DNA from: Amycolatopsis aidingensis
Lineage (GTDB): Bacteria > Actinomycetota > Actinomycetes > Mycobacteriales > Pseudonocardiaceae
DNA: 64,000 bases
Assembly: GCF_018885265.1 (NCBI RefSeq)
Contig: NZ_CP076538.1
Coordinates: 3,260,001-3,324,000 of the forward strand
Direction: 5' to 3'
In this document: piece after piece, positions 3 through 27,300 of the stretch
How the letters are laid out: each line of letters begins with the position of its first letter
Numbering within the stretch: the stretch's first letter is position 1
Notes under the pieces: generated by a model
Told to the model about the DNA's origin: nothing
Seen by the model: only the letters and a program-made list of their open reading frames with translations
The model's database searches: none
Translations under genes and position numbers: made by a program

Positions 3-1016
3 GCCAACCTGGCGCGCGGGCTGCTGCTGACCGCTCTGGCGCTGGCCGTGCTGCTGGATCTCGGCTCGATCTGGGCGCTGTACCTGGTGGCGCTCGGTCT
101 CGGCCTTGCCGAGACACTGCACGACACCGCGGCGCAGTCGATCATGCCGCAGCTGGTGCCCGGCGAGCAGCTGTCCCGGGCGAACGGGCGGCTGTACGCG
201 GTGGAGCTGACCGCCAACGAGTTCGCGGGCCCGCCGCTGGCCGGGTTCCTGGTGGCCACCGGAGCGGTCCTCGCGCTGGCGGCGCCCGGTGTGCTCTGGG
301 TACTGGCCGTCGGCGTGCTGCTGCTGGTGCGTGGCCGGTTCCGGATCGAGCGCGAGCGCGGCACCACGCTGCGCGCCGATATCGCCGAGGGGCTGCGCTT
401 CCTGTGGCGGCACCGGCTGCTGCGCACGCTCGCCGCGATGACCGGAATGATCAACTTCGCCAGCACCGCGATGACCAGCCTGCTGGTGCTGTACGTGGTC
501 GGGCCCGAGTCCCCGATGGGGCTGTCCGAGCGGGCCTACGGGGTACTGCTGGCCACGGTGGCCGCCGGGAGCCTGCTCGGCTCCTTCGGCACCGCCTGGT
601 TCGAGCGGCGGCTCGGCAGGGCCCGCTGCCTCGTACTGTCCATTGTGGTCTCCGCGCTGCTGGTCGGCATACCGGCCGCGACGGCGGACCCGTACCTGAT
701 CGGTGCGGGGTTCTTCCTCGGTGGCGCCGGGATCATCGGCTGGAACGTGATCGTGGTCTCGCTGCGCCAGCGGATCACCCCCGAGCGCCTGCTGGGCCGG
801 GTGAACAGCGGGTGCCGCCTGCTCGCCTGGGGCGCCATGCCACTGGGTGCCGCCGCGGGCGGGCTGCTGGCGGAGCTGCTCGGGTTGCGCGCGGTGTTCG
901 CCGTGATGGCGGCGGTGGTGCTCGCCGCGCTCGCCGGTATGCGGATCGTGACCGATGCCGCGATGCATGCCGCCGAGCGCGACGGGCGCGAGGCCGCCGT
1001 TGCCGTTCCAGGCTAA
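3..1016 (+). CDS. MFS transporter, 5' end outside window
   Basis: C-terminal part of a major facilitator superfamily permease, probably an exporter of small molecules. The frame is open from the first bases of the window, so the true start lies upstream; the GTG at 48 is internal. The visible part has about nine hydrophobic segments and an Arg-rich cytoplasmic loop (about residues 100-125) of the kind that joins the two six-helix halves. The N-terminal part of the visible protein resembles the enterobactin-exporter/MFS_3-like group often found in actinomycetes. The stop overlaps by three bases the stop region of the convergent methyltransferase gene. The substrate cannot be read from the sequence. 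Confidence 0.8.
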   Translation, partial: ANLARGLLLTALALAVLLDLGSIWALYLVALGLGLAETLHDTAAQSIMPQLVPGEQLSRANGRLYAVELTANEFAGPPLAGFLVATGAVLALAAPGVLWVLAVGVLLLVRGRFRIERERGTTLRADIAEGLRFLWRHRLLRTLAAMTGMINFASTAMTSLLVLYVVGPESPMGLSERAYGVLLATVAAGSLLGSFGTAWFERRLGRARCLVLSIVVSALLVGIPAATADPYLIGAGFFLGGAGIIGWNVIVVSLRQRITPERLLGRVNSGCRLLAWGAMPLGAAAGGLLAELLGLRAVFAVMAAVVLAALAGMRIVTDAAMHAAERDGREAAVAVPG

Positions 1017-16990: not shown

Positions 16991-17146
16991 CCGCACTCGC
17001 TCGACCGAGGGGGAGGTGCGGGGCGGCCGGCCGGAAACCCCGGCCGGCCGCCCCATCCGTTGACCGCTTTTCCGCCACCTGTGGGGTACCCGCCGCGATG
17101 CGTCGCCAGCCATACTTGGGCGTGACGTGTGGGGGAGTGGCTTCGG

Positions 17147-19441
17147 ATGAGCGGGACGAGCGGGCGGCGGGACACTTTCGGCGCCGAGCTACGCAGGTTG
17201 CGGCTCGCCGCGGGTCTCTCGCTGAGCGCCCTCGCAGAGCGGGTGCACTACAGCAAGGGTTACCTGAGCAAGGTGGAAACCGGCGCCACCGCGCCGAACA
17301 TGTCGCTTGCGCTGCTGTGCGACGCCGAGTTCGGTACCGCCGGAGCGCTGGCCGAACTCGTACCCGCCAGCACGCGGCGGCAGCAGGTACCACGGCCGCC
17401 CGCGCCGTCGCTGCCCGCGCCCCCTCCGGTCACCGCGCACTTCACCGGCCGGGAACGGGAGTTCGAGGAGATCCGGACGGTGCTGCTGGACGACACCCCG
17501 GCCGCGCCGCCGGTCTGCGTGCTCAGCGGGATGGCCGGGGTGGGCAAGACCACCCTGGCCGCACGGATCGCGCATCGGCTGGAGGCCAGGTTCAGCGACG
17601 GCTGCCTGTTCCTGGACCTGCGCGGTCATACCCCGGACGCCACCGAGGTGAGCGCCGCGGAAGCACTCGACCGCTGTCTGCGCGCCCTCGGTATGCCGGG
17701 GGAGGAGATCCCCCGTGACACCGATGATCGCGCCGGTGTCTACCGGAACCGGTTGCGTGGCAGGCGTTTCCTCATCGTGCTGGACAACGTGCGCAGTGCG
17801 CGGCAGGTGCTGCCGCTGCTGCCGGCCGAGCCGAACTGCCGGGTGCTGGTCACCAGCCGGAACCGGTTGCACGCTTTGGACGACGCGCACCACGTCCTGC
17901 TGGACACCATGCCAGAGGCGGATGCGGCGGCGCTGTTCCGGCGCATCGCGGGCACGGCCCTGCCACCGGCAGGCGCGGACCAGCACACCGACCGGCTGCT
18001 GACCCGGATCGGGGACCGGTGCGGCAGGCTGCCCCTTGCGGTGCGGATCGCCGCCGCCCGGTACCGCGGCCACGCCGGCTGGACCCCGGACGAGCTGGTC
18101 ACCCGGCTGGCCGACGAGCAGGCCAGGCTGGACCTGCTGGACGATGGGGAGCGCAGCGTCACCGCGGCCTTCCGCCTGTCCTACCACGACCTGCCCGAGC
18201 AGCAGCGGCATATGTTCACCGTGCTGGCCCTGCATCCGGGCCAGGACATCGACCTGCGCGCCGCCTGCGCCCTTGCCGACACCGACCTGCCCGCGGCCGA
18301 GCGCGCGCTCATCGGGCTGCAGGACGCCAACCTGCTCATCCAGCGGGCGCCGCGGCGATACCAGTTCCACGACCTGCTTCGCGCCTTCGCCACGCACGGT
18401 GCGGTGGACGCGGTGCCGCAGGCGGGACGGCGGGCCGCGGTCAGCAGGCTGATCGACTTCGCGCTCGCCGGGGCGGAGCGTGCCTCCATCCTGCTGGCTC
18501 CGCACCGCAGCAGGCCCGCGTTGCACCTCGGCCGCCTGCCCCTGGAACCCACGCCACTGCCGGATATCGACGCCGCACTGGCCTGGTTCACCGCGGAATG
18601 GCCCAACCTCGTCGCGCTCTGCCGGCTGGCCGCCGAGCAGGGACCGCGGCAGCGGTGCTGGCAGCTGGCGTTCAGCCTGCGGGACTTCTTCTTCCTGACC
18701 AAGCTGCGGCAGCCCTGGATCGAGACGCACGCCCTCGCCGTGGCCGCGGCGAAGGAGGCAGGGGACACCCGTGCCCGCGCGGGCAGCCTGAACAATCTCG
18801 GCGTCCCGTACCTCGAGCTCGGGGACCTCGACTCGGCTGCGGCCTGCTACCAGGAGGCCCTCGGGCTGTTCCACGAACTCGGCGATGGGCTGGGCATCAG
18901 CAGCGCACTGGCCAATCACGCCTGGGTGACACATCACCGCGGCGAGCACCAGGCCGCCGTGCGGGACCTGCGCCACGCGCTGGAGTTCTACGAGCGGCAG
19001 GGACTGCCGCGCAACGCGGCCATCACGTTGCGCGGTATCGCCTTGATCGAGGCCGAGTCCGGCGCCCTCGACGACGCCGTGCCGCATGCCCTCGCCGCCC
19101 TGCGGTCCTGCCAGGAGCTCGGGCTCGACCTGGACGCCGCGATGACGCTCAACTGCCTCGGCCTCGCCTACTACCGATCCGGGCGGTGGGACCAGGCGGC
19201 GCGGGCCTACCAGCAGGCTCGCACGCTGGGTGCGGGTGTGGGGAGCCTGCATGAGACGGCCCGCGCGGAGACCGGCCTCGGCAACCTCGCCGCCGCGCGC
19301 GGCGACCGGGCCGCGGCGCAGTGGCACTGGGCCAGGGCCGGGGAACACTACCCCGAGCTGAGCACGCTCCGGGTGGCCGAGGCGCGGGACCGGCTCGCCG
19401 AGCAGGCCCGCACCTCCTCAGCCGGGGCAGGCCAACCCTGA
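17147..19441 (+). CDS. XRE-NB-ARC-TPR STAND protein
   Basis: A 764-residue signal-transducing ATPase. Residues about 5-65 are a Cro/C1-type helix-turn-helix (GLSLSALAERVHYSKGYLSKVE). The NB-ARC ATPase follows, with Walker A GMAGVGKTT (near 128) and kinase-2 FLIVLDNV (near 208). TPR repeats fill about residues 530-755 (GSLNNLGVPYLELGDLDSA and similar). This is the AfsR-like layout with an XRE domain in place of the SARP domain. GGGGGAG at 17131 supports ATG 17147. It ends three bases from the end of the convergent TIR gene. It may be a regulator or a defence sensor. Confidence 0.88.
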   Translation: MSGTSGRRDTFGAELRRLRLAAGLSLSALAERVHYSKGYLSKVETGATAPNMSLALLCDAEFGTAGALAELVPASTRRQQVPRPPAPSLPAPPPVTAHFTGREREFEEIRTVLLDDTPAAPPVCVLSGMAGVGKTTLAARIAHRLEARFSDGCLFLDLRGHTPDATEVSAAEALDRCLRALGMPGEEIPRDTDDRAGVYRNRLRGRRFLIVLDNVRSARQVLPLLPAEPNCRVLVTSRNRLHALDDAHHVLLDTMPEADAAALFRRIAGTALPPAGADQHTDRLLTRIGDRCGRLPLAVRIAAARYRGHAGWTPDELVTRLADEQARLDLLDDGERSVTAAFRLSYHDLPEQQRHMFTVLALHPGQDIDLRAACALADTDLPAAERALIGLQDANLLIQRAPRRYQFHDLLRAFATHGAVDAVPQAGRRAAVSRLIDFALAGAERASILLAPHRSRPALHLGRLPLEPTPLPDIDAALAWFTAEWPNLVALCRLAAEQGPRQRCWQLAFSLRDFFFLTKLRQPWIETHALAVAAAKEAGDTRARAGSLNNLGVPYLELGDLDSAAACYQEALGLFHELGDGLGISSALANHAWVTHHRGEHQAAVRDLRHALEFYERQGLPRNAAITLRGIALIEAESGALDDAVPHALAALRSCQELGLDLDAAMTLNCLGLAYYRSGRWDQAARAYQQARTLGAGVGSLHETARAETGLGNLAAARGDRAAAQWHWARAGEHYPELSTLRVAEARDRLAEQARTSSAGAGQP

Positions 19442-19444
19442 CAG

Positions 19445-20521
19445 CTACCTGCGGGACTCCAGCCTGCGGATCATCTGGTGCCAGATCCGCTCGAGCAGCT
19501 CCTCCGTGGCCAGGGTCAGCTCGCCCGGCTCGCCCCCGAGCAGTGACCGGTCGGACAGCAGCACCGCGACCGTGCCGTCCCGTTCGCCACGGCAGGGGCG
19601 GGCGGTGGCGTCCACCGCGGCCTCGTTGCCAGGCTGGTGCCGGTCGAGGCCGAACAGCAGGGTGCCGTCCTCCTGCTCGGTTCGGTCGATGTCCAGCGCG
19701 TACACGGTGCGGCCGTGCCGGGTCACCCTGGCCACCACCGCGGTTTCGGACCGCTCGACCGACTCCGCCAGGCCGACCCGCCGCAGCCGGGGCAGTTCCC
19801 TCGCCAGCAGGCTGCCGAGGCGGTCCAGCAGCAACGCCGACTGCTGCCGGGCGTCCGGCTCGAGGGGCCGCAAGTCCGGCAGCGGCAGGTCGGCCAGCCC
19901 TGGCGAGATGATCTCGCTGATCTCCCTTGGCGGGTGGTGCGCGCTGCCCGTGCTGCTCCGCACCTTCCGCCAGAGTTGCGTGGCGAGTTGCTCCGGGGTG
20001 TGGTCCTCGGCCCGCAACACGCCGGTGTGCGGATGCAGCCGGTGCGCGGGCACCAGTGGGCTGCCGATCAGCACCGGCAGGATGTAGCCGCCCCCGCGCT
20101 CCATGCCCGTCCACATCGCGGCCTCGAACTCGTCGGAGGGCACCTGCTTGGCGAAGTACTCCGCGGAGATGAACGGCACGAAGTACCGGGTGCGCCTGCC
20201 GTAGACCAGGCGTTGCGCGGCCACGAAGTTGCGGCCCCACCATTCGTTGGTCTTGTCCCGGTCGTAGAAGACACGCATGCCGAGCCGGTCGCAGGCGAGC
20301 TTCGTGCGCTCCACATAGCTGCGGTGCTCGCCCGCGAAGGAGAACGCGAGGTCGTATTCGATCTCCCCGTCGTCCCGCCCGGTCTCCGGCCGGTGGGGCA
20401 GTGGCCCTGGTGGTTCCGGGTCGCCGTGGCCGATCGAGTTTCCGCGCACCACATTGCGGTCCCCGATGGCCGAGTTGTTCACCGGCCCGTAGCTGGTGTG
20501 TCCCGAATTCCTCCGCGGCAC
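19445..20521 (-). CDS. TIR-domain protein with N-terminal amyloid-like motif
   Basis: A 358-residue protein. Residues about 50-190 are a TIR-type fold (EYDLAFSFAGEHRSYVERT, then MRVFYDRDKTNEWWG and YFVPFISAEYF), which often cleaves NAD or makes cyclic ADP-ribose messengers. Residues about 5-32 carry the motif NSAIGDRNVVRGNSI, closely like the C-terminus of the protein encoded just upstream. The C-terminal 150 residues are unrecognised. GTG 20521 is chosen for spacing to GGAAGGG; GTG 20530, overlapping the upstream stop, is possible. It is co-transcribed with the membrane protein gene. Confidence 0.8.
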   Translation of the reverse strand: MPRRNSGHTSYGPVNNSAIGDRNVVRGNSIGHGDPEPPGPLPHRPETGRDDGEIEYDLAFSFAGEHRSYVERTKLACDRLGMRVFYDRDKTNEWWGRNFVAAQRLVYGRRTRYFVPFISAEYFAKQVPSDEFEAAMWTGMERGGGYILPVLIGSPLVPAHRLHPHTGVLRAEDHTPEQLATQLWRKVRSSTGSAHHPPREISEIISPGLADLPLPDLRPLEPDARQQSALLLDRLGSLLARELPRLRRVGLAESVERSETAVVARVTRHGRTVYALDIDRTEQEDGTLLFGLDRHQPGNEAAVDATARPCRGERDGTVAVLLSDRSLLGGEPGELTLATEELLERIWHQMIRRLESRR

Positions 20522-20526
20522 CGGAC

Positions 20527-22191
20527 TCACCCCTTCCGGATCCGGTTGCCGGAAACCCGGTTGTTGCTGCCGACCGCGGAATTGTGCACATCTCCCGCGA
20601 TGTAGGTGTTGTTCGCGACCACTTCCTGGGCCTGCCGCATGAACTCCACCACCGAGAGGTCGCGCTCCTCGAGGAACATCCCCACTGCCCGGAACAGCCG
20701 CCTGCGCAGCAGCCGCAGGTAGCGTTCGACATCGGCGAGCTGGAAGTAGTTGAGCACGTCCGTGCTCGCGGCGAGCTCGCGGAGGCTGCAACTGGCGCCG
20801 TACTTGGCGGGCAGCATCATCCCCGGGGTGTCGGGCAGCGGTTGGATGCTGGTGCACAGGCCGCCCAGCCTGCCGATCAGCGCCGCGGGTAGTTGCACCG
20901 CGCCCAGCAGGGAGGCCTGGATCGGCCTTCCCGGCCCGGCGGGCAGCTGGTCCACCGTACGGTAACCCTCCCGCACCGGCAGCAGCACGCACGGAGTCCA
21001 CTCCAGATAGAGCGTGCGCTCGTTCATCCCGAGATGGAGGTACACGGACACGGTGATGTCCCGGTTCCACGCCTCCACCTCGAACACCCGGTAGTAGCGC
21101 AGCCATTCCAGCGGCGCCTCGGCGAGTTCGGCCATCCTGCGCGGCGGCAGCACCTGGTTCGGCGGCTGGTCGAGGCTCGCCAGCACCTCCCGTGCCGCGG
21201 GATCGCCAAGGTTGGCCAGCAGCTCCTCGGCAGGCGCGATCACCTCCGCCCGCTCGGTGAGCCCGCTCAGCCGGTCGCTCGGTGCCAGCGAGGGCGAGTG
21301 CCGCAGGGTGCGCAGCTCCGCCGAGATGGCGTCGTACAGCTCACTCAGGGCGAAGCCGCGGGGCAGCGGCAGCTCCCCGGCGCGCGCCTGGCCGTTGGTC
21401 CCCGCGGCGTGCTCCTCGCTGTCCTCAGCGGGCTCCAGCATCACCGTCATGGAGAACGGCCGGTGCCGGATGCCCGCCCCGACGAACGGTTCGTATCCGC
21501 GGTATGCCACCAGGTTCGCGTTCCGGTCCGCCTCGGCCACCCGCCGCAGGTCGGCGGTGTAGCGTTCCCGCCCCAGCCGCCGGACCAGGCGCTCGCCCGG
21601 CCAGCGATCGACCGCTGGCGCCGGGGTGAACGAGCCCCGCCGGAAGCTCTTGGTCAGCAGGCACCACAGCACGAACTCCTCGGCCGCCACCACGGCGATG
21701 GCGGCAAGGCCGAGGACCACCTCGGCCGGTCCCAGGGTGAGTGCGGGCAGCGCGGTACCGGTGGCGAGGAGTTCCGCCAGTGCGGTGGGCAGGAAGCCCA
21801 GGGCCAGTAAGGCGGCGCCGAGCCAGATCCAGGGCAGGTAGCGCCTGGCCGTGGCGTGTTCGCGTGCCAGTACCGGCCAGCGCACCACCAGGGCGGTAAC
21901 CAGCCACAGCAGGGCCAGCACGATGTTGCTGATCGCGAAGGCGAGCAGGATCGCCAGCAGGGTCCAGTCCCGGATCTGCCTGCGCGCCCTGGCGGCCACG
22001 GCTTCCCGCAGTACGGCGCCCGCGTTGACCGCCGTGGACGGCGGGATGACCCGCAGCGATTCGGTGAGGAACTCCCGGATGGCGTTGTCGCAGAAATTCT
22101 GATCTTGATGTGCCGCGGCGCAGAGGTATCGGGTCGCCTCGTCGCGCGATTGCGTGATTTCCGGACGGGACGATTGTTCGGTTGTGGTCAT
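20527..22191 (-). CDS. Membrane protein with C-terminal amyloid-like motif, partner of TIR protein
   Basis: A 554-residue protein I do not recognise. An N-terminal helical part (about 1-70) is followed by three or four membrane helices (about 75-195) and a large soluble domain (about 200-520). The last 30 residues hold NTYIAGDVH and NSAVGSNNRVSGNRI, an Asn/Gly/Ser-rich motif repeated at the N-terminus of the downstream TIR protein. GAGGAG precedes the ATG at 22191; an upstream ATG at 22251 has no good ribosome binding site. The shared motif suggests the two proteins assemble, with this one placing the complex at the membrane. Confidence 0.75.
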   Translation of the reverse strand: MTTTEQSSRPEITQSRDEATRYLCAAAHQDQNFCDNAIREFLTESLRVIPPSTAVNAGAVLREAVAARARRQIRDWTLLAILLAFAISNIVLALLWLVTALVVRWPVLAREHATARRYLPWIWLGAALLALGFLPTALAELLATGTALPALTLGPAEVVLGLAAIAVVAAEEFVLWCLLTKSFRRGSFTPAPAVDRWPGERLVRRLGRERYTADLRRVAEADRNANLVAYRGYEPFVGAGIRHRPFSMTVMLEPAEDSEEHAAGTNGQARAGELPLPRGFALSELYDAISAELRTLRHSPSLAPSDRLSGLTERAEVIAPAEELLANLGDPAAREVLASLDQPPNQVLPPRRMAELAEAPLEWLRYYRVFEVEAWNRDITVSVYLHLGMNERTLYLEWTPCVLLPVREGYRTVDQLPAGPGRPIQASLLGAVQLPAALIGRLGGLCTSIQPLPDTPGMMLPAKYGASCSLRELAASTDVLNYFQLADVERYLRLLRRRLFRAVGMFLEERDLSVVEFMRQAQEVVANNTYIAGDVHNSAVGSNNRVSGNRIRKG

Positions 22192-22462: not shown

Positions 22463-24325
22463 TCAGGCGGCGATGCCGGAGCGCTTGGCGGCCTTCATGA
22501 TGCGCCGCTTCTCCTGGCCGGAGATCACCCCTTCCCGCTTGAGTTCCTTGGTGACCTGCCGGACGTGCTTGACGAACTGCTTGTGCCCTGCGTACTGACC
22601 GCCCTCGTCGATCAGGTCGTTGATGGTGCAGCCGGAGTCGTTCTCGGTGTTCGGCACCGTGGTGTCATGGCCCGCGATGATCACCGTGTCCCGCACGTCC
22701 GAGCCGGGGCAGGCGTCGGTGGCCGAGGCCACCACCGTGAAGGTGAGCTTGCCGTCCACCGAGCGGTTACCCGCCTGGTCGGTGGCGTGGTACAGCACCG
22801 TGTGCGCACCGGGGCCGGTGACCTCGAAGGGCTCGCCGTAGGCGGTGTAGGAACCGCCGTCCAGGGAGTAGCGCAGGAAGCGCACCCCGGACCCCTGGTC
22901 ACTGGCGGAAAGGCTCACCGTGGCGGTATCGACATAGTTCCACTGGGCGTCCTGCGGGCCGACGACCTGTGCGGTGACCTCCGGCGGGGTGGTGTCACCA
23001 GGGTCGGCCTCGGCCACGGTGAAGGTCACCGACCCGATATCGGAGAGGTTCCCCGCGTTGTCGGTTGCCCGGTAGCGCACGGTGTGCGCACCGGGCTCGG
23101 TGACCTCGAACGGCTCGTCATACGGGCCGAAGGAACCGTCGTCCACCGCGTACTGCACCGATTCCACCCCGGAGCCGGCATCGCTCGCCGCAAGGGTCAC
23201 CGTGGCCGCACCGACGTAGTTGCCGTCGCCGTCCTTGTCCCCGGTGACCTCGGCGGTGACCTCCGGCGGGGTGGTGTCGCCAGGGTCGGCCTCCACGATG
23301 GTGACGATGACCGAACCCTCCTCGGAGGTGTTGCCGGAGTTGTCGGTCGCCCGGTAGACGACGGTGTGGTCCCCGTTGCCCTGGACGGTGATCGGCTCGG
23401 TGTAGGCCTGGAACCCGGCCTCGTCGAGGTCGTACTCGATGCCCTTGACCCCGGATCCGGTGTCCTGCGCGTCAAGCGTGACGGTGGCGGAGCCGATGTA
23501 GTTGCCGTCGTCGTCCTGGTCGCCGGTGACCTCGGCGGTGACCTCCGGCGGGGTGGTGTCCCCTGGATCCGGCTCGACGACCCGGAAGGGCACCGAACCG
23601 GGCTCGGAGGTGTTGCCGGCCATGTCCGTGCCGCGGTACTGCACCGTGTGGTCACCGGGTTCGTCGATCCGCACCGGCCCGGTGTACGGCTGGAACCCGG
23701 TGTCGTCCACCTCGTACTCGACACTGTCCACCCCGGATCCGGTGTCCTGCGCGTCCAGGGTGACGGTGGCGGAGCCGATGTAGTTGCCGTCGTCGTCCTG
23801 GTCGCCGGTGACCTCGGCGGTGACCTCCGGCGGGGTGGTGTCCTCGCCGCCACCGTCCTCGGTCACCACCAGCACGCCCGCCATCTGCCCGTGCCCGGGG
23901 ATGGCGCAGTAGAACCGGTACTTTCCGGGGGTCAGCGTCACCTCGGCCTCATGCCGCCCGCCCTTGGCGTCGTTCGGGCCCGCCAGGATGTTCAGGTCCA
24001 CATCCTGGTTATACTCCGGCGAGGACGTGTCGAAGGTCAGCGTATGGGTCATGCCGGTGGTGTTCCCGGTTGCCGCGCTGTTCTCGAACACGATGGTCGC
24101 CGGACCCGCCGTGGCCGTGGTGGTGACCGAGGCGTATTCGGTGATGCTGTCGTCCGCGGTCCAGGTCAGCACCTGCTCCTGGGCGGTGCCGGGGGAGTCC
24201 GGTGCCGGCGCCGCGGACACCGGCACCAGCCACAGTGCCAGCAAGCTCGTGCCGAGCCCGGCCGCGGTCAGCGCGCGGGCCGGTCTCGGGCGGCCCCGGA
24301 AGGCCGCGAGTAGCCGTTGGATCAT
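22463..24325 (-). CDS. Secreted cupredoxin with four Ig-like repeats
   Basis: A 620-residue exported protein. Residues 1-38 are a signal peptide. Residues about 45-155 form a blue-copper (plastocyanin-like) domain with ligands in GMTHTLTF and FYCAIPGHGQMAG (His, Cys, His, Met). Four Ig-like repeats of about 90 residues follow (about 160-530), each starting DTTPPEVTAEVTG and containing YRATDNAGN-like ends, as in OmpL47/HYR-type surface repeats. The last 60 residues (CTINDLIDEGGQYAGHKQF onward) match a module in the neighbouring ThuA protein. It is the last gene of the laccase operon. It may shuttle electrons or copper at the cell surface. Confidence 0.85.
   Translation of the reverse strand: MIQRLLAAFRGRPRPARALTAAGLGTSLLALWLVPVSAAPAPDSPGTAQEQVLTWTADDSITEYASVTTTATAGPATIVFENSAATGNTTGMTHTLTFDTSSPEYNQDVDLNILAGPNDAKGGRHEAEVTLTPGKYRFYCAIPGHGQMAGVLVVTEDGGGEDTTPPEVTAEVTGDQDDDGNYIGSATVTLDAQDTGSGVDSVEYEVDDTGFQPYTGPVRIDEPGDHTVQYRGTDMAGNTSEPGSVPFRVVEPDPGDTTPPEVTAEVTGDQDDDGNYIGSATVTLDAQDTGSGVKGIEYDLDEAGFQAYTEPITVQGNGDHTVVYRATDNSGNTSEEGSVIVTIVEADPGDTTPPEVTAEVTGDKDGDGNYVGAATVTLAASDAGSGVESVQYAVDDGSFGPYDEPFEVTEPGAHTVRYRATDNAGNLSDIGSVTFTVAEADPGDTTPPEVTAQVVGPQDAQWNYVDTATVSLSASDQGSGVRFLRYSLDGGSYTAYGEPFEVTGPGAHTVLYHATDQAGNRSVDGKLTFTVVASATDACPGSDVRDTVIIAGHDTTVPNTENDSGCTINDLIDEGGQYAGHKQFVKHVRQVTKELKREGVISGQEKRRIMKAAKRSGIAA
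23478..23843. repeat. Identical 84-bp copies inside the Ig-like repeats
   Basis: The segment 23478-23561 is identical to 23760-23843. It encodes the junction between two Ig-like units (GDQDDDGNYIG region). The identity at DNA level points to recent duplication or gene conversion within the repeat array; such runs are also prone to assembly error. Confidence 0.85.
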
Positions 24326-24362
24326 CAGAATTCTCCACTCCTCGTGGTGCGGGTGCCCGTAC

Positions 24363-27300
24363 CTACAGCTCCCGCACCCGGATGTTGCGGAACTCGACCA
24401 GGTCGCTGTTGCCGTGGTTCTGCAGGCCGATGTAGCCGTTGACGAACTGGCGCAGGTCGCTCGCCGGGTCACCGTCCCGGATGGACTGCTTGCCGGGGGT
24501 GTTGTCGAACTCGTTGATCACCACACCGTTGCGGATGATCGTGTAGTGCTGCCCGACGACCCTGATCTCGTAGTCGTTCCACTCGCCCTTCGGGGTCACC
24601 CCGGCGCGGCCGTAGTAGACCTGGTCGAAGTTGTAGACCGAACCGGTCTTCTGCGGCTCACCGGAAGCCCCGTCGTAGATCTGGATCTCGTGCCCGCAGT
24701 AGATCCCCACCCAGGCCTGCGAGTCCCGCGCGGAGCCACGGGTGCCGCAGCTGCTGGCCGGTCGCTGGTCCAGCGGGGTACGCGGATCGGGGAACCGGAC
24801 GAACACCCCGCTGTTGGCCCGATGCTGCTCCGGCGCGATGTCCTTGAACTGCAACTTCAGCGAGAAGTCCTGGAACGGCTCCGCCGAGTACCAGAGCATG
24901 CCGAGGCCGCCGGAACTGCGGATGGAGCCGTCCGGCCGCAACTCGAAGTTCCCGCTCGGGGCCTGCTGCCACCCGTCGAGGGAGCGCGCGGTCCCGTCGA
25001 AGATGGCCTCGTACCCGGAGTCGCCCTCCTTGCCGATGTCGGACTGCCGCGCGGCCGTGACCAGCGTCGAGCGCTCCTGCCTGGTGAGCACGCCGTCCCG
25101 CTGCAGCTGCCGGGTCACGGACCCGACGTGCCGCACGAAGGACCGGTGGTCCGGCCAGCTGCTCTCGTCGTCGATCAGGTCGTCCACCGTGCAGGCGCCT
25201 GCCGCCTGGTGGTTGCGCACGGCGGTGTCGGTGTCCCGGAAGTGCACGTAGCGGTTGGAGTCCGGCACCGCGCAGTCCACCGTCACCTCGGTACTGGTGG
25301 TCACCTGCTCGCCGTCGGCGTAGGTCACCGTCAGCGTCGCGGTGTAGGTGCCCACCCCGGCGTAGGTGTGCCGGGGGTTGGCCTCGGTGGAGGTGCTGCC
25401 GTCACCGAAGTCCCACTGGTAGGAAACGCCGCCGGAGCGGGAGCCGTTGAATGCCATGGTCAGCGGCTTGTTCTGCACGGCGGTGGCCGAGACCGACGGC
25501 GCCGGGGTGGCAGGTCCGCCCTGGTAGGTGACCCGGATCAGCTTCTGGTTGTCGTCGAGGCTGAAGAAGCCACCCGCGTAGTCCAGCAGGTACAGTGCGC
25601 CGTCCGGGCCGAACTTGGCATCCATCCAGCTCTGTAGCTCGTTGTCACCGGTGCCTGCCCGGACGATGTGCCGCAGGCTCTCGGCGAAGGCGGGCGGCTG
25701 CTGCTGCGGAACGCCTTCCGGATTCACGGTCACCGCGACCCGGTTGTTGGGGTTGGACTGGTCGCCGATGAACCACTTGTTGTCCCAGTACTCCGGCCAC
25801 GCGACCCCGCTGTCCACGTTCACCCGCGAGCGGTGGTATGTCGGTCCGTCCATCACGGCCTGGCCGCCGCCCTTGAGGTAGGGCTGGGTGTAGCTGACGT
25901 CCTCCTCGTCGTAGGTCGGCACGCCGCTGCCGTCACCGCGGTCAGGGAACACCGGGCCACCGCCGCCGGGGGAGTACCAGATCATGTTGTCCCGCGCGGG
26001 CGGGATGTCCACCAGGCCGGTGTTGCGCGGCGAGGTGTTCTTGAGGTTGTCGCAGTCATACCAGCCGGTCAGCACGCTGGCGTCGGTGTTGCTGCGGTCG
26101 CGGTAGGGCTGCCGGTTACCCATGCAGTACGGCCAGCCCTGGTTGCCTGCCGAGGTGATGATCGTGGCCGTCTCGTACTTCGCGGGCCCGAGTTCGGGGC
26201 TCGGCGAGAACGCGTCCGGCCCGACCCAGGCCGCGGTCAGCCAGTCGTTCTTCTTGTCGTAGTGGAGCCGGGAGATGTTGCGCACGCCCATCACGTAGAT
26301 CTCCGGGCGGGTCTTGTCCCCTGGATCCTCGGCCTCGGGGAACAGGTTCCCCTCGGGGATGGTGTAGGAACCGTCGTCCTCGGGATGGATTCGCAGGATC
26401 TTGCCGTTCAGGTCGTTGGTGTTACCCGAGGTGCGGCGGGCGTCCTGGAAGGAGAGGCCCTTGTAGTCCTTGGTCCAGTTGTTGCCCGAGTAGCCCTCCG
26501 AACCCTGGGAGGAGTTGTTGTCCCCGGACCCGATGTAGAGGTTGCCCTCGTTGTCGAAGGCCATGCCACCGCCGGCGTGGCAGCAGCTGTGGATCTGGGC
26601 GTCCCACTGCAGCAGGTCCTTGCGGGTGTTCTTGTCGATGGACTGCGCGGCGGCGTCGTAGGTGAACCGGGAGATGGTCCGCTTGCCGATCCGGTTCTCC
26701 TTGTCGATGGAGGCATGCGGCATCCAGTAGGCGTAGATCCACCCGTTCTCGGCGAAGTCCGGGTCCAGGGTGATCCCCACCAGGCCCTCCTCGTTCTTCA
26801 CCAGCTCGCCGCCACTGCCGCGGTTGCCCATCACCTCGAGCGTGGTGAGCAGCTTGACCTGCTTGGTCTCCGGGTCCCACTGGTGGATGGTTCCGCAGCC
26901 GAGGCCCACGTTCGGATCCTCCCAGCTGGGGATGGGCCCGGAGGCGCAGGCGGCCTTGCCGATGTAGAACACCGTGCCGTCCTCGGCGATGGTCAGGCCG
27001 TGCGGCTCGCCGATCTGGTCGAGCTGGCCTTCCTTGTTCTCCGCGGTGAGCCGCTCGATCCGGTAGTTCGACCCGATGGTGGCCTGGCAGTCGCCACGCA
27101 CCATGCCGGTGGTCCACTGGATGGCGCCGAGCAGATGGCTGCGGAACCGCTCCTCGGAGTAGCTGTCGGCGGTGCCGCCCATCCCGGTGTAGAAGGAGCG
27201 GCCACCGTCGTAGTCCCGGCACCAGGAGATCGGATGGAAGGCGCCGTTCGCGCCCTCACCCGGGTCGTAGGTGTGTTCCTGAACCTGTGCGACCGTGTGT

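What the first reader, a model, noticed from the sequence alone, without database searches (positions are those of the whole stretch)
19445..22191. TIR protein and membrane protein joined by a shared amyloid-like motif
Seen: the membrane protein ends with NSAVGSNNRVSGNRI and the TIR protein, encoded a few bases downstream, begins with NSAIGDRNVVRGNSI (nine identical residues of 15 plus one V/I pair; similarity continues on both sides). The codons differ widely, so it is not a fresh DNA duplication. Known: bacterial amyloid signalling motifs (BASS) and RHIM-like motifs occur in pairs on adjacent genes, at the end of one protein and the start of its partner, and transmit activation by templated assembly. 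Inference: a membrane sensor or effector recruits and nucleates the TIR enzyme, perhaps as an abortive-infection system.
Basis: partly seen in the sequence, partly recalled or inferred. Interest (0 to 1): 0.85.

Follow-up and report, generated by a model that had tools for sequence, protein, structure and literature searches.

The report
Membrane protein paired with TIR enzyme
A membrane protein and the enzyme encoded right behind it end and begin with the same short tag, and in related bacteria the tag differs from place to place but nearly always matches between the two neighbours, which suggests a lock-and-key signalling device that does without the usual immune receptor.

Summary
The membrane protein (MEM, 20527-22191, minus) ends with a ~22-residue motif, predicted disordered, that recurs at the start of the TIR protein (19445-20530), whose GTG start overlaps the MEM stop. 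MEM belongs to an undescribed family. Searching six frames with the MEM tail, the best match lies directly downstream in 63 of 70 loci, and in 35 of 40 further loci from other orders. The motifs are very diverse, yet each tail fits its own neighbour far better than others': 0 of 100,000 random pairings reach the observed total in either set, orphans included, and own beats crossed in 6 of 6 tested genomes with two MEMs. The partner's other end varies: TIR, SEFIR/TIR, nucleoside phosphorylase, EAD1, mostly a small helical domain. So MEM most likely is a membrane receptor recruiting interchangeable effectors through a private homotypic motif, like NLR/BASS amyloid signalling but without an NLR and with polarity reversed. 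Amyloid formation, enzyme activity and defence are untested. A RHIM/BASS3 label is not supported. Verdict: real; new variant of a known kind.

The parts
20527..22191 (-). MEM: 554-aa membrane protein of an undescribed actinomycete family
   Evidence: ORF; no family in pfam, padloc or phrogs, one chance-level ncbifam row at E 0.14; 155 database proteins at E<=0.001, the query itself included; AF2 model pLDDT 88.9, pTM 0.87
21664..21972 (-). MEM transmembrane region (hydrophobic helices within residues 74-107, 119-143, 155-176; probably four helices, both ends cytosolic)
   Evidence: family-mean hydropathy and charge pattern, helices in the model; number of helices and topology are inference
20653..21495 (-). 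MEM cytosolic domain, residues 233-513; weak resemblance to helix-grip (Bet v 1/START) folds
20530..20595 (-). C-terminal motif of MEM (GDVHNSAVGSNNRVSGNRIRKG); residues 530-554 have pLDDT below 50
19445..20530 (-). TIR partner protein, start codon overlapping the MEM stop
   Evidence: TIR_2 E 8.4e-6, 26.7 bits, just under the 28-bit cut-off
20423..20488 (-). N-terminal motif of the TIR protein (GPVNNSAIGDRNVVRGNSIGHG)
20057..20344 (-). TIR domain with conserved D130/E131 (numbering of P0121); E131 is the likely catalytic glutamate
   Evidence: profile match to PDB chain 4lzp_B, E 4.2e-4
19448..20056 (-). C-terminal region of the TIR protein, shared with stand-alone homologues of about 300-310 aa, missing in several shorter motif-bearing homologues

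Best explanation
MEM is a membrane-anchored receptor or hub whose cytosolic domain senses an unknown signal. On activation its free C-terminal motif self-assembles and, by homotypic templating, captures the matching N-terminal motif of the co-translated partner. Here that clusters and switches on a TIR enzyme, expected to cleave NAD+ or a related nucleotide and to arrest or kill the cell. Different copies use different motif sequences as private addresses, so that receptors and effectors do not cross-talk. Shown by sequence: the paired motif, its co-variation, interchangeable partner domains, a tail predicted to be disordered, a conserved TIR glutamate. Inferred: cross-beta assembly, receptor role of MEM, direction of the signal, enzyme output, biological purpose.
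For: Best six-frame match to the MEM tail lies directly downstream in 63 of 70 loci (62 by the script's limit, L070 at -37 nt added by me) and in 35 of 40 loci from other orders (one of them, L166, doubtful). With the partner defined by position alone (three frames of the 300 nt after the MEM stop) and orphans kept: first set 41 dereplicated loci, own mean 67.8 against 31.9 for others; second set 37, own 66.9 against 37.4; 0 of 100,000 random pairings reach the observed total in either. Partial Mantel r 0.53 controlling for MEM body similarity, 0 of 2,000 (on pairs chosen by motif match). Two MEMs in one genome: own 57-94, crossed 21-44, 6 of 6 tested. Identical residues share codons in 58% against 50-51% expected, so the likeness is kept mainly at protein level. 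The partner's other end varies: TIR, SEFIR/TIR_2, PNP_UDP_1, EAD1, small helical. The motif has low pLDDT in both AF2 models.
Against: No amyloid assay or predictor was available. Four of 70 MEM loci have no recognisable partner (L049, L051, L053, L068), and 5 of 40 in the second set gave no downstream top hit. The own partner ranks first in only 25 of 41 and 19 of 37 rows and within the top four in 36 and 31, probably because motif classes recur. Among close relatives (bodies at least 50% identical) the true pairing beats the swap in 25 of 29 and 39 of 43, not always. The common partner is a small helical bundle of unknown activity. Which protein is the receptor is not shown. The setting near housekeeping genes in some genera fits a stress or developmental role as well as defence.
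Confidence: 0.62

Rival explanations
1. The shared motif is an ordinary, non-amyloid docking element: the two tails form a small beta-structured heterodimer or help co-translational assembly of a stable complex, with no templated polymerisation.
For: Co-variation, the 4-nt gene overlap (first start codon at -4 in 38 of 63 partners) and predicted disorder of the isolated motifs are equally expected for paired docking.
Against: In a docking pair the two sides usually differ; here both sides carry the same motif (12 of 22 identical in the window), as homotypic stacking predicts; some partners seem to carry two copies (by eye); the N/G/S/V-rich style resembles published motifs (by eye).
Confidence: 0.25
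2. Concerted evolution: repeated DNA duplication or gene conversion across the gene junction keeps the two ends alike without a protein-level function.
For: The copies lie within about 100-200 nt of each other; codon sharing at identical residues is a little above expectation (0.58 against 0.51).
Against: The excess is small; in the window 3 of 12 identical residues share a codon; matched motifs occur in deeply diverged families.
Confidence: 0.05
3. MEM is the effector (for example a membrane-permeabilising or lipid-acting protein) and the partner is the sensor or adaptor that triggers it.
For: In BASS systems the C-terminal motif sits on the membrane effector (Bell) and the N-terminal motif on the sensor (PMC7889193, passages). 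EAD1 partners and the small helical partners could be adaptors.
Against: MEM is the constant part and some partners are enzymes typical of effectors (TIR, SEFIR, phosphorylase), so the variable end looks like the output.
Confidence: 0.2

Closest known systems
BASS motifs of bacterial NLR/Bell gene pairs (Dyrka et al. 2020, not read; described in PMC7889193 and PMC8086366, passages read)
   Same: Adjacent or overlapping genes; short motif shared between the end of one protein and the start of the other; many motif families; TIR known among effectors; filamentous actinobacteria among the hosts.
   Different: No NLR: the effector's partner is a membrane protein of another family. Polarity is reversed (motif C-terminal on the constant protein, N-terminal on the effector). 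Motif classes were not matched to BASS1-10, whose models are not held here.
RHIM / BASS3 / fungal PP motif
   Same: Hydrophobic-G-x-x-N core in the window pair.
   Different: RHIM tetrad absent; similarity to the published Frankia BASS3 peptide is at chance for MEM (3086 of 5000 shuffles as good) and weak for TIR (535 of 5000).
Effector-associated domain (EAD) conflict systems (PMC7159879, PMC8195603, passages only)
   Same: Swappable effectors (TIR, phosphorylase) joined through a homotypic adaptor; two partners here carry EAD1 itself.
   Different: The adaptor here is a ~20-25 residue motif predicted unfolded, not a folded EAD; the passages I searched describe no such membrane protein.
Stand-alone bacterial TIR proteins of ~300-310 aa (e.g. 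P0125, Streptomyces canus)
   Same: Same TIR domain and C-terminal region; P0125 47% identical over 84% of the query.
   Different: They lack the N-terminal motif; their neighbours were not examined.

Membership tests
BASS amyloid-signalling gene pair | Same short motif in the end of one protein and the start of the next, in adjacent genes | tested here: met
BASS amyloid-signalling gene pair | One partner is an NLR carrying the motif at its N-terminus | tested here: not met
   MEM matches no Pfam family; the nearby NB-ARC-TPR gene 17129-19441 is convergent and not among the six best matches to the tail in the window
BASS amyloid-signalling gene pair | Effector (Bell, CHAT or TIR) carries the motif at its C-terminus | tested here: not met
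   The TIR protein carries it N-terminally; Bell could not be tested, no model held
BASS amyloid-signalling gene pair | Motif forms amyloid and propagates it to the partner | not testable with these tools
   needs peptides
RHIM/BASS3 | [VI]Q[VILC]G tetrad (pattern recalled) within the motif | tested here: not met
   in 4 of 120 MEM tails and 0 of 120 TIR N-termini, not in the window pair
RHIM/BASS3 | Similarity to a published BASS3 motif peptide above chance | tested here: inconclusive
   MEM 3086 of 5000 shuffles as good, TIR 535 of 5000; one peptide only
TIR domain enzyme | TIR fold by profile | tested here: met
   TIR_2 8.4e-6, just under the curated cut-off, for the window protein; PF13676 precomputed for it and all 120 listed homologues; 4lzp_B E 4.2e-4 (the PDB entry is named putative uncharacterized protein, that it is a TIR domain is recalled)
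TIR domain enzyme | Catalytic glutamate | tested here: met
   E131 invariant in the 32 sequences aligned, and aligned to an E of 4lzp; that it is the catalytic one is inferred
Helix-grip/START fold (MEM cytosolic domain) | Fold similarity | tested here: inconclusive
DUF5955 (small partners) | Pfam PF19380 above its cut-off | tested here: inconclusive
   best 26.5 bits against 27.1 (L067); others lower or none

The most novel reading that the evidence does not exclude
A widespread, NLR-independent class of membrane receptors in actinomycetes uses many co-evolving short motifs as private addresses, each templating amyloid-like assembly of its own interchangeable effector (TIR, SEFIR, phosphorylase, EAD1 or helical domain), so that one cell can run several insulated prion-like signalling channels at its membrane. 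The FHA-domain membrane protein of Crossiella suggests that further receptor types use the same scheme.
Probability: 0.45. Interest if true: 0.88.

Novelty: new variant of a known kind. Interest (0 to 1): 0.8.

Why it matters
A 2021 review (PMC7889193, passage seen) asks outright whether signalling amyloids exist in fungi and bacteria in pathways that do not depend on NLRs, and notes that past searches were biased to NLR/executor pairs. This family offers a concrete, testable case: 110 loci were compared here, and they give many natural motif pairs for measuring specificity. It also names a family of uncharacterised membrane proteins as the likely receptor, and gives small helical proteins of unknown function a context. 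DUF5955 is in none of the papers held. MEM has no name to search by; the topic searches (open-licence papers only) showed, by titles and starts of abstracts, nothing on an NLR-free membrane family of this kind.

Tried and rejected

Rows dropped or chosen: L031, L032, L038 dropped as duplicates of L054, L064, L098 before the count of 70; L001-L030 and L134-L163 (short versions) not used; the 40 loci of the second set are 40 of the places listed, mostly the best, from 36 genomes, 23 of the 40 in genus g93; the tail was 45 residues and 55, with limits -30..250 and -60..250 nt. In one search the 64 pairs were chosen because tail and neighbour matched (L101 added by hand), which flatters them; one search repeats the test without that choice. 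The first part is void: the region still held the last residues of MEM itself; one search masks them. L046 enters with the wrong tail because its MEM is frame-disrupted. L166 dropped. Two-MEM genomes: 6 tested; G529 and G450 were left out because one of their loci has no recognised partner; other multi-copy genomes were not fetched.

Full report
What is there. On the minus strand, MEM (20527-22191, 554 aa) is followed with a GTGA overlap by a TIR protein (19445-20530). MEM has no family in Pfam, PADLOC or PHROGs and only a chance-level NCBIfam row at E 0.14. The TIR protein matches TIR_2 at E 8.4e-6, 26.7 bits against a 28-bit cut-off. Its D130/E131 are invariant in the 32 sequences aligned, and a profile of them finds PDB chain 4lzp_B (a TIR domain, by recall) at E 4.2e-4.

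The shared motif. The tail of MEM and the start of the TIR protein share 12 of 22 residues, 38 of 66 nucleotides and 3 of 12 codons at identical residues. The score is 57, against 37 for the next of 828 segments in the 64 kb; 0 of 20,000 shuffles reach it. Of 209 other adjacent same-strand ORF pairs taken from the MEM loci none reaches 45.

The family. A protein search gave 155 MEM proteins at E<=0.001, the query included, 120 listed, from a capped candidate list. In whole genomes MEM was found in 33 of 298 of the order (single sequence query), 51 of 394 of the class (profile, 19 of 138 genera) and 8 of 198 of the phylum (these samples overlap). 52 named loci came from Lentzea, Amycolatopsis, Crossiella, Kutzneria, Actinokineospora, Nocardia and others.

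The pairing test. For 70 loci (the window, 20 unnamed minus 3 duplicates, 52 named) I compared the last 45 residues of MEM with every six-frame segment of at least 50 residues of the same locus. The best match lay directly downstream on the same strand in 63 (62 by the script's limit; L070 starts at -37 nt). By inspection L101 and L046 also have matching partners and L036 a weak one; L049, L051, L053 and L068 have none nearby. Many of the 70 are close relatives, Lentzea above all. A second set of 40 loci outside the order, chosen by the MEM profile, gave 35 of 40; failures were L180, L183, L191, L195, L197; L166 is doubtful and L184 and L190 are weak; 23 of the 40 are from one genus.

Co-variation. 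The motif is not one motif: for example NSAVGSNNRV, APINTGxNxGSM, VGNQAVG, GDNSAPITQTG, GPVISSNIGTSGKARTG, GSTFAVG, TGGTFNGPVAAG, SMSGGAIATG. The fairest test defines the neighbour by position only (three frames of the 300 nt after the stop, MEM's own residues masked) and keeps loci without partner. First set, 41 loci with bodies under 75% identical: own mean 67.8, others 31.9, own first in 25 of 41 and in the top four in 36; worse are L036, L046, L049, L051, L068. Second set, 37 loci: 66.9 against 37.4, first in 19, top four in 31; worse are L172, L180, L184, L190, L195, L197. In both, 0 of 100,000 random pairings reach the observed total. Where bodies are at least 40% identical the true pairing beats the swap in 128 of 133 and 98 of 103 combinations; at 50%, 25 of 29 and 39 of 43. 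On the 36 dereplicated pairs chosen by motif match, a partial Mantel test controlling for body similarity gives r 0.53, 0 of 2,000. In six genomes with two MEMs own scores are 57-94 and crossed 21-44. Identical residues share a codon in 58% (612 of 1055, 70 pairs) against 50-51% expected, so the likeness is mainly kept at the protein level.

Interchangeable partners. Of 63 partners, 56 are short (67-140 aa) and 7 long. Long ones: the window's TIR; SEFIR/TIR_2 in L086 (L087 by likeness); PNP_UDP_1 in L044 (L050 by likeness); L096 and L097 of about 220 aa, which look to me like degenerate nucleotide cyclases (recall; no family hit). Two partners of the second set carry EAD1 well above its cut-off (L189, L194). 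Of the short ones scanned, some match DUF5955 weakly, all below its cut-off, others not at all; the AF2 model of one (27 sequences, pLDDT 74.2) is a four-helix bundle with the motif at low confidence.

Mechanism. The simplest account of a constant receptor-like protein, a variable partner and a matching, co-evolving, apparently unfolded motif on both is homotypic assembly as in BASS, HET-s and RHIM systems. Whether it is amyloid is not shown. For the window copy the output would be TIR enzymatic activity. Defence is plausible from the effector types, but in Lentzea, Umezawaea, Kibdelosporangium and Actinokineospora the locus lies among genes that read as release factor, Rho and ribosomal protein genes (clusters; names by recall from the sequences), so a general stress or developmental death pathway is equally possible.

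Compared with what is known. The published bacterial systems pair NLRs with Bell, CHAT or TIR effectors (PMC7889193, PMC8086366, passages). PMC12261475 (parts 2 and 3 of 6 read) builds a motif finder; those parts describe a fungal proteome scan and no NLR-free bacterial membrane protein. PMC8195603 and PMC7159879 were searched for passages only; PMC9815663 and PMC7885112 were seen in listings only. The original BASS paper was not available, so MEM may appear in its supplements. The window system does not meet two defining features of a BASS pair (NLR partner; polarity) nor the RHIM tetrad, so I do not file it as BASS3; it works like a BASS pair.

Noticed in passing
L104 1477-2844 (-); L103 1480-2703 (-) (Crossiella genomes): An FHA-domain protein with two C-terminal hydrophobic segments holds an internal motif (GGAINIGPGEQHVAGRDQ) that recurs at the start of the next gene, a DUF5955-like protein (GTNVNIGPGQQYVAGRDQ): the same scheme with another receptor, seen by eye.
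   Followed up: partly
L177, L185, L190, L198, L200, L201: The partner seems to carry two copies of the motif in tandem (by eye), reminiscent of the two pseudo-repeats of fungal HET-s.
   Followed up: no
L037, L052, L069, L091 and others, directly upstream of MEM: A ~220-aa protein with an N-terminal anchor, Thr/Ser-rich linker and presumably outside domain precedes MEM on the same strand in 13 loci of 6-7 genera; it may be the outside sensor. Not in that cluster for the window.
   Followed up: partly
L046: MEM is split between two frames while the downstream partner has a matching motif.
   Followed up: no
L051, L053, L068, L049: MEM genes without a recognisable neighbour partner.
   Followed up: partly
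window 17129-19441 (+): HTH, NB-ARC and TPR protein convergent with the TIR gene; not among the best motif matches.
   Followed up: partly
window 22463-24472 (-): Secreted-looking protein with repeated Ig-like units and a cupredoxin-like start (read from the sequence); not tested further.
   Followed up: no
P0212, P0216, P0218, P0220, P0222-P0224, P0226, P0227, P0229-P0232, P0234-P0238, P0240: TIR homologues with other N-terminal modules instead of the motif: a recurrent module of about 110 aa, or a kinase (P0212, P0220, P0223).
   Followed up: no
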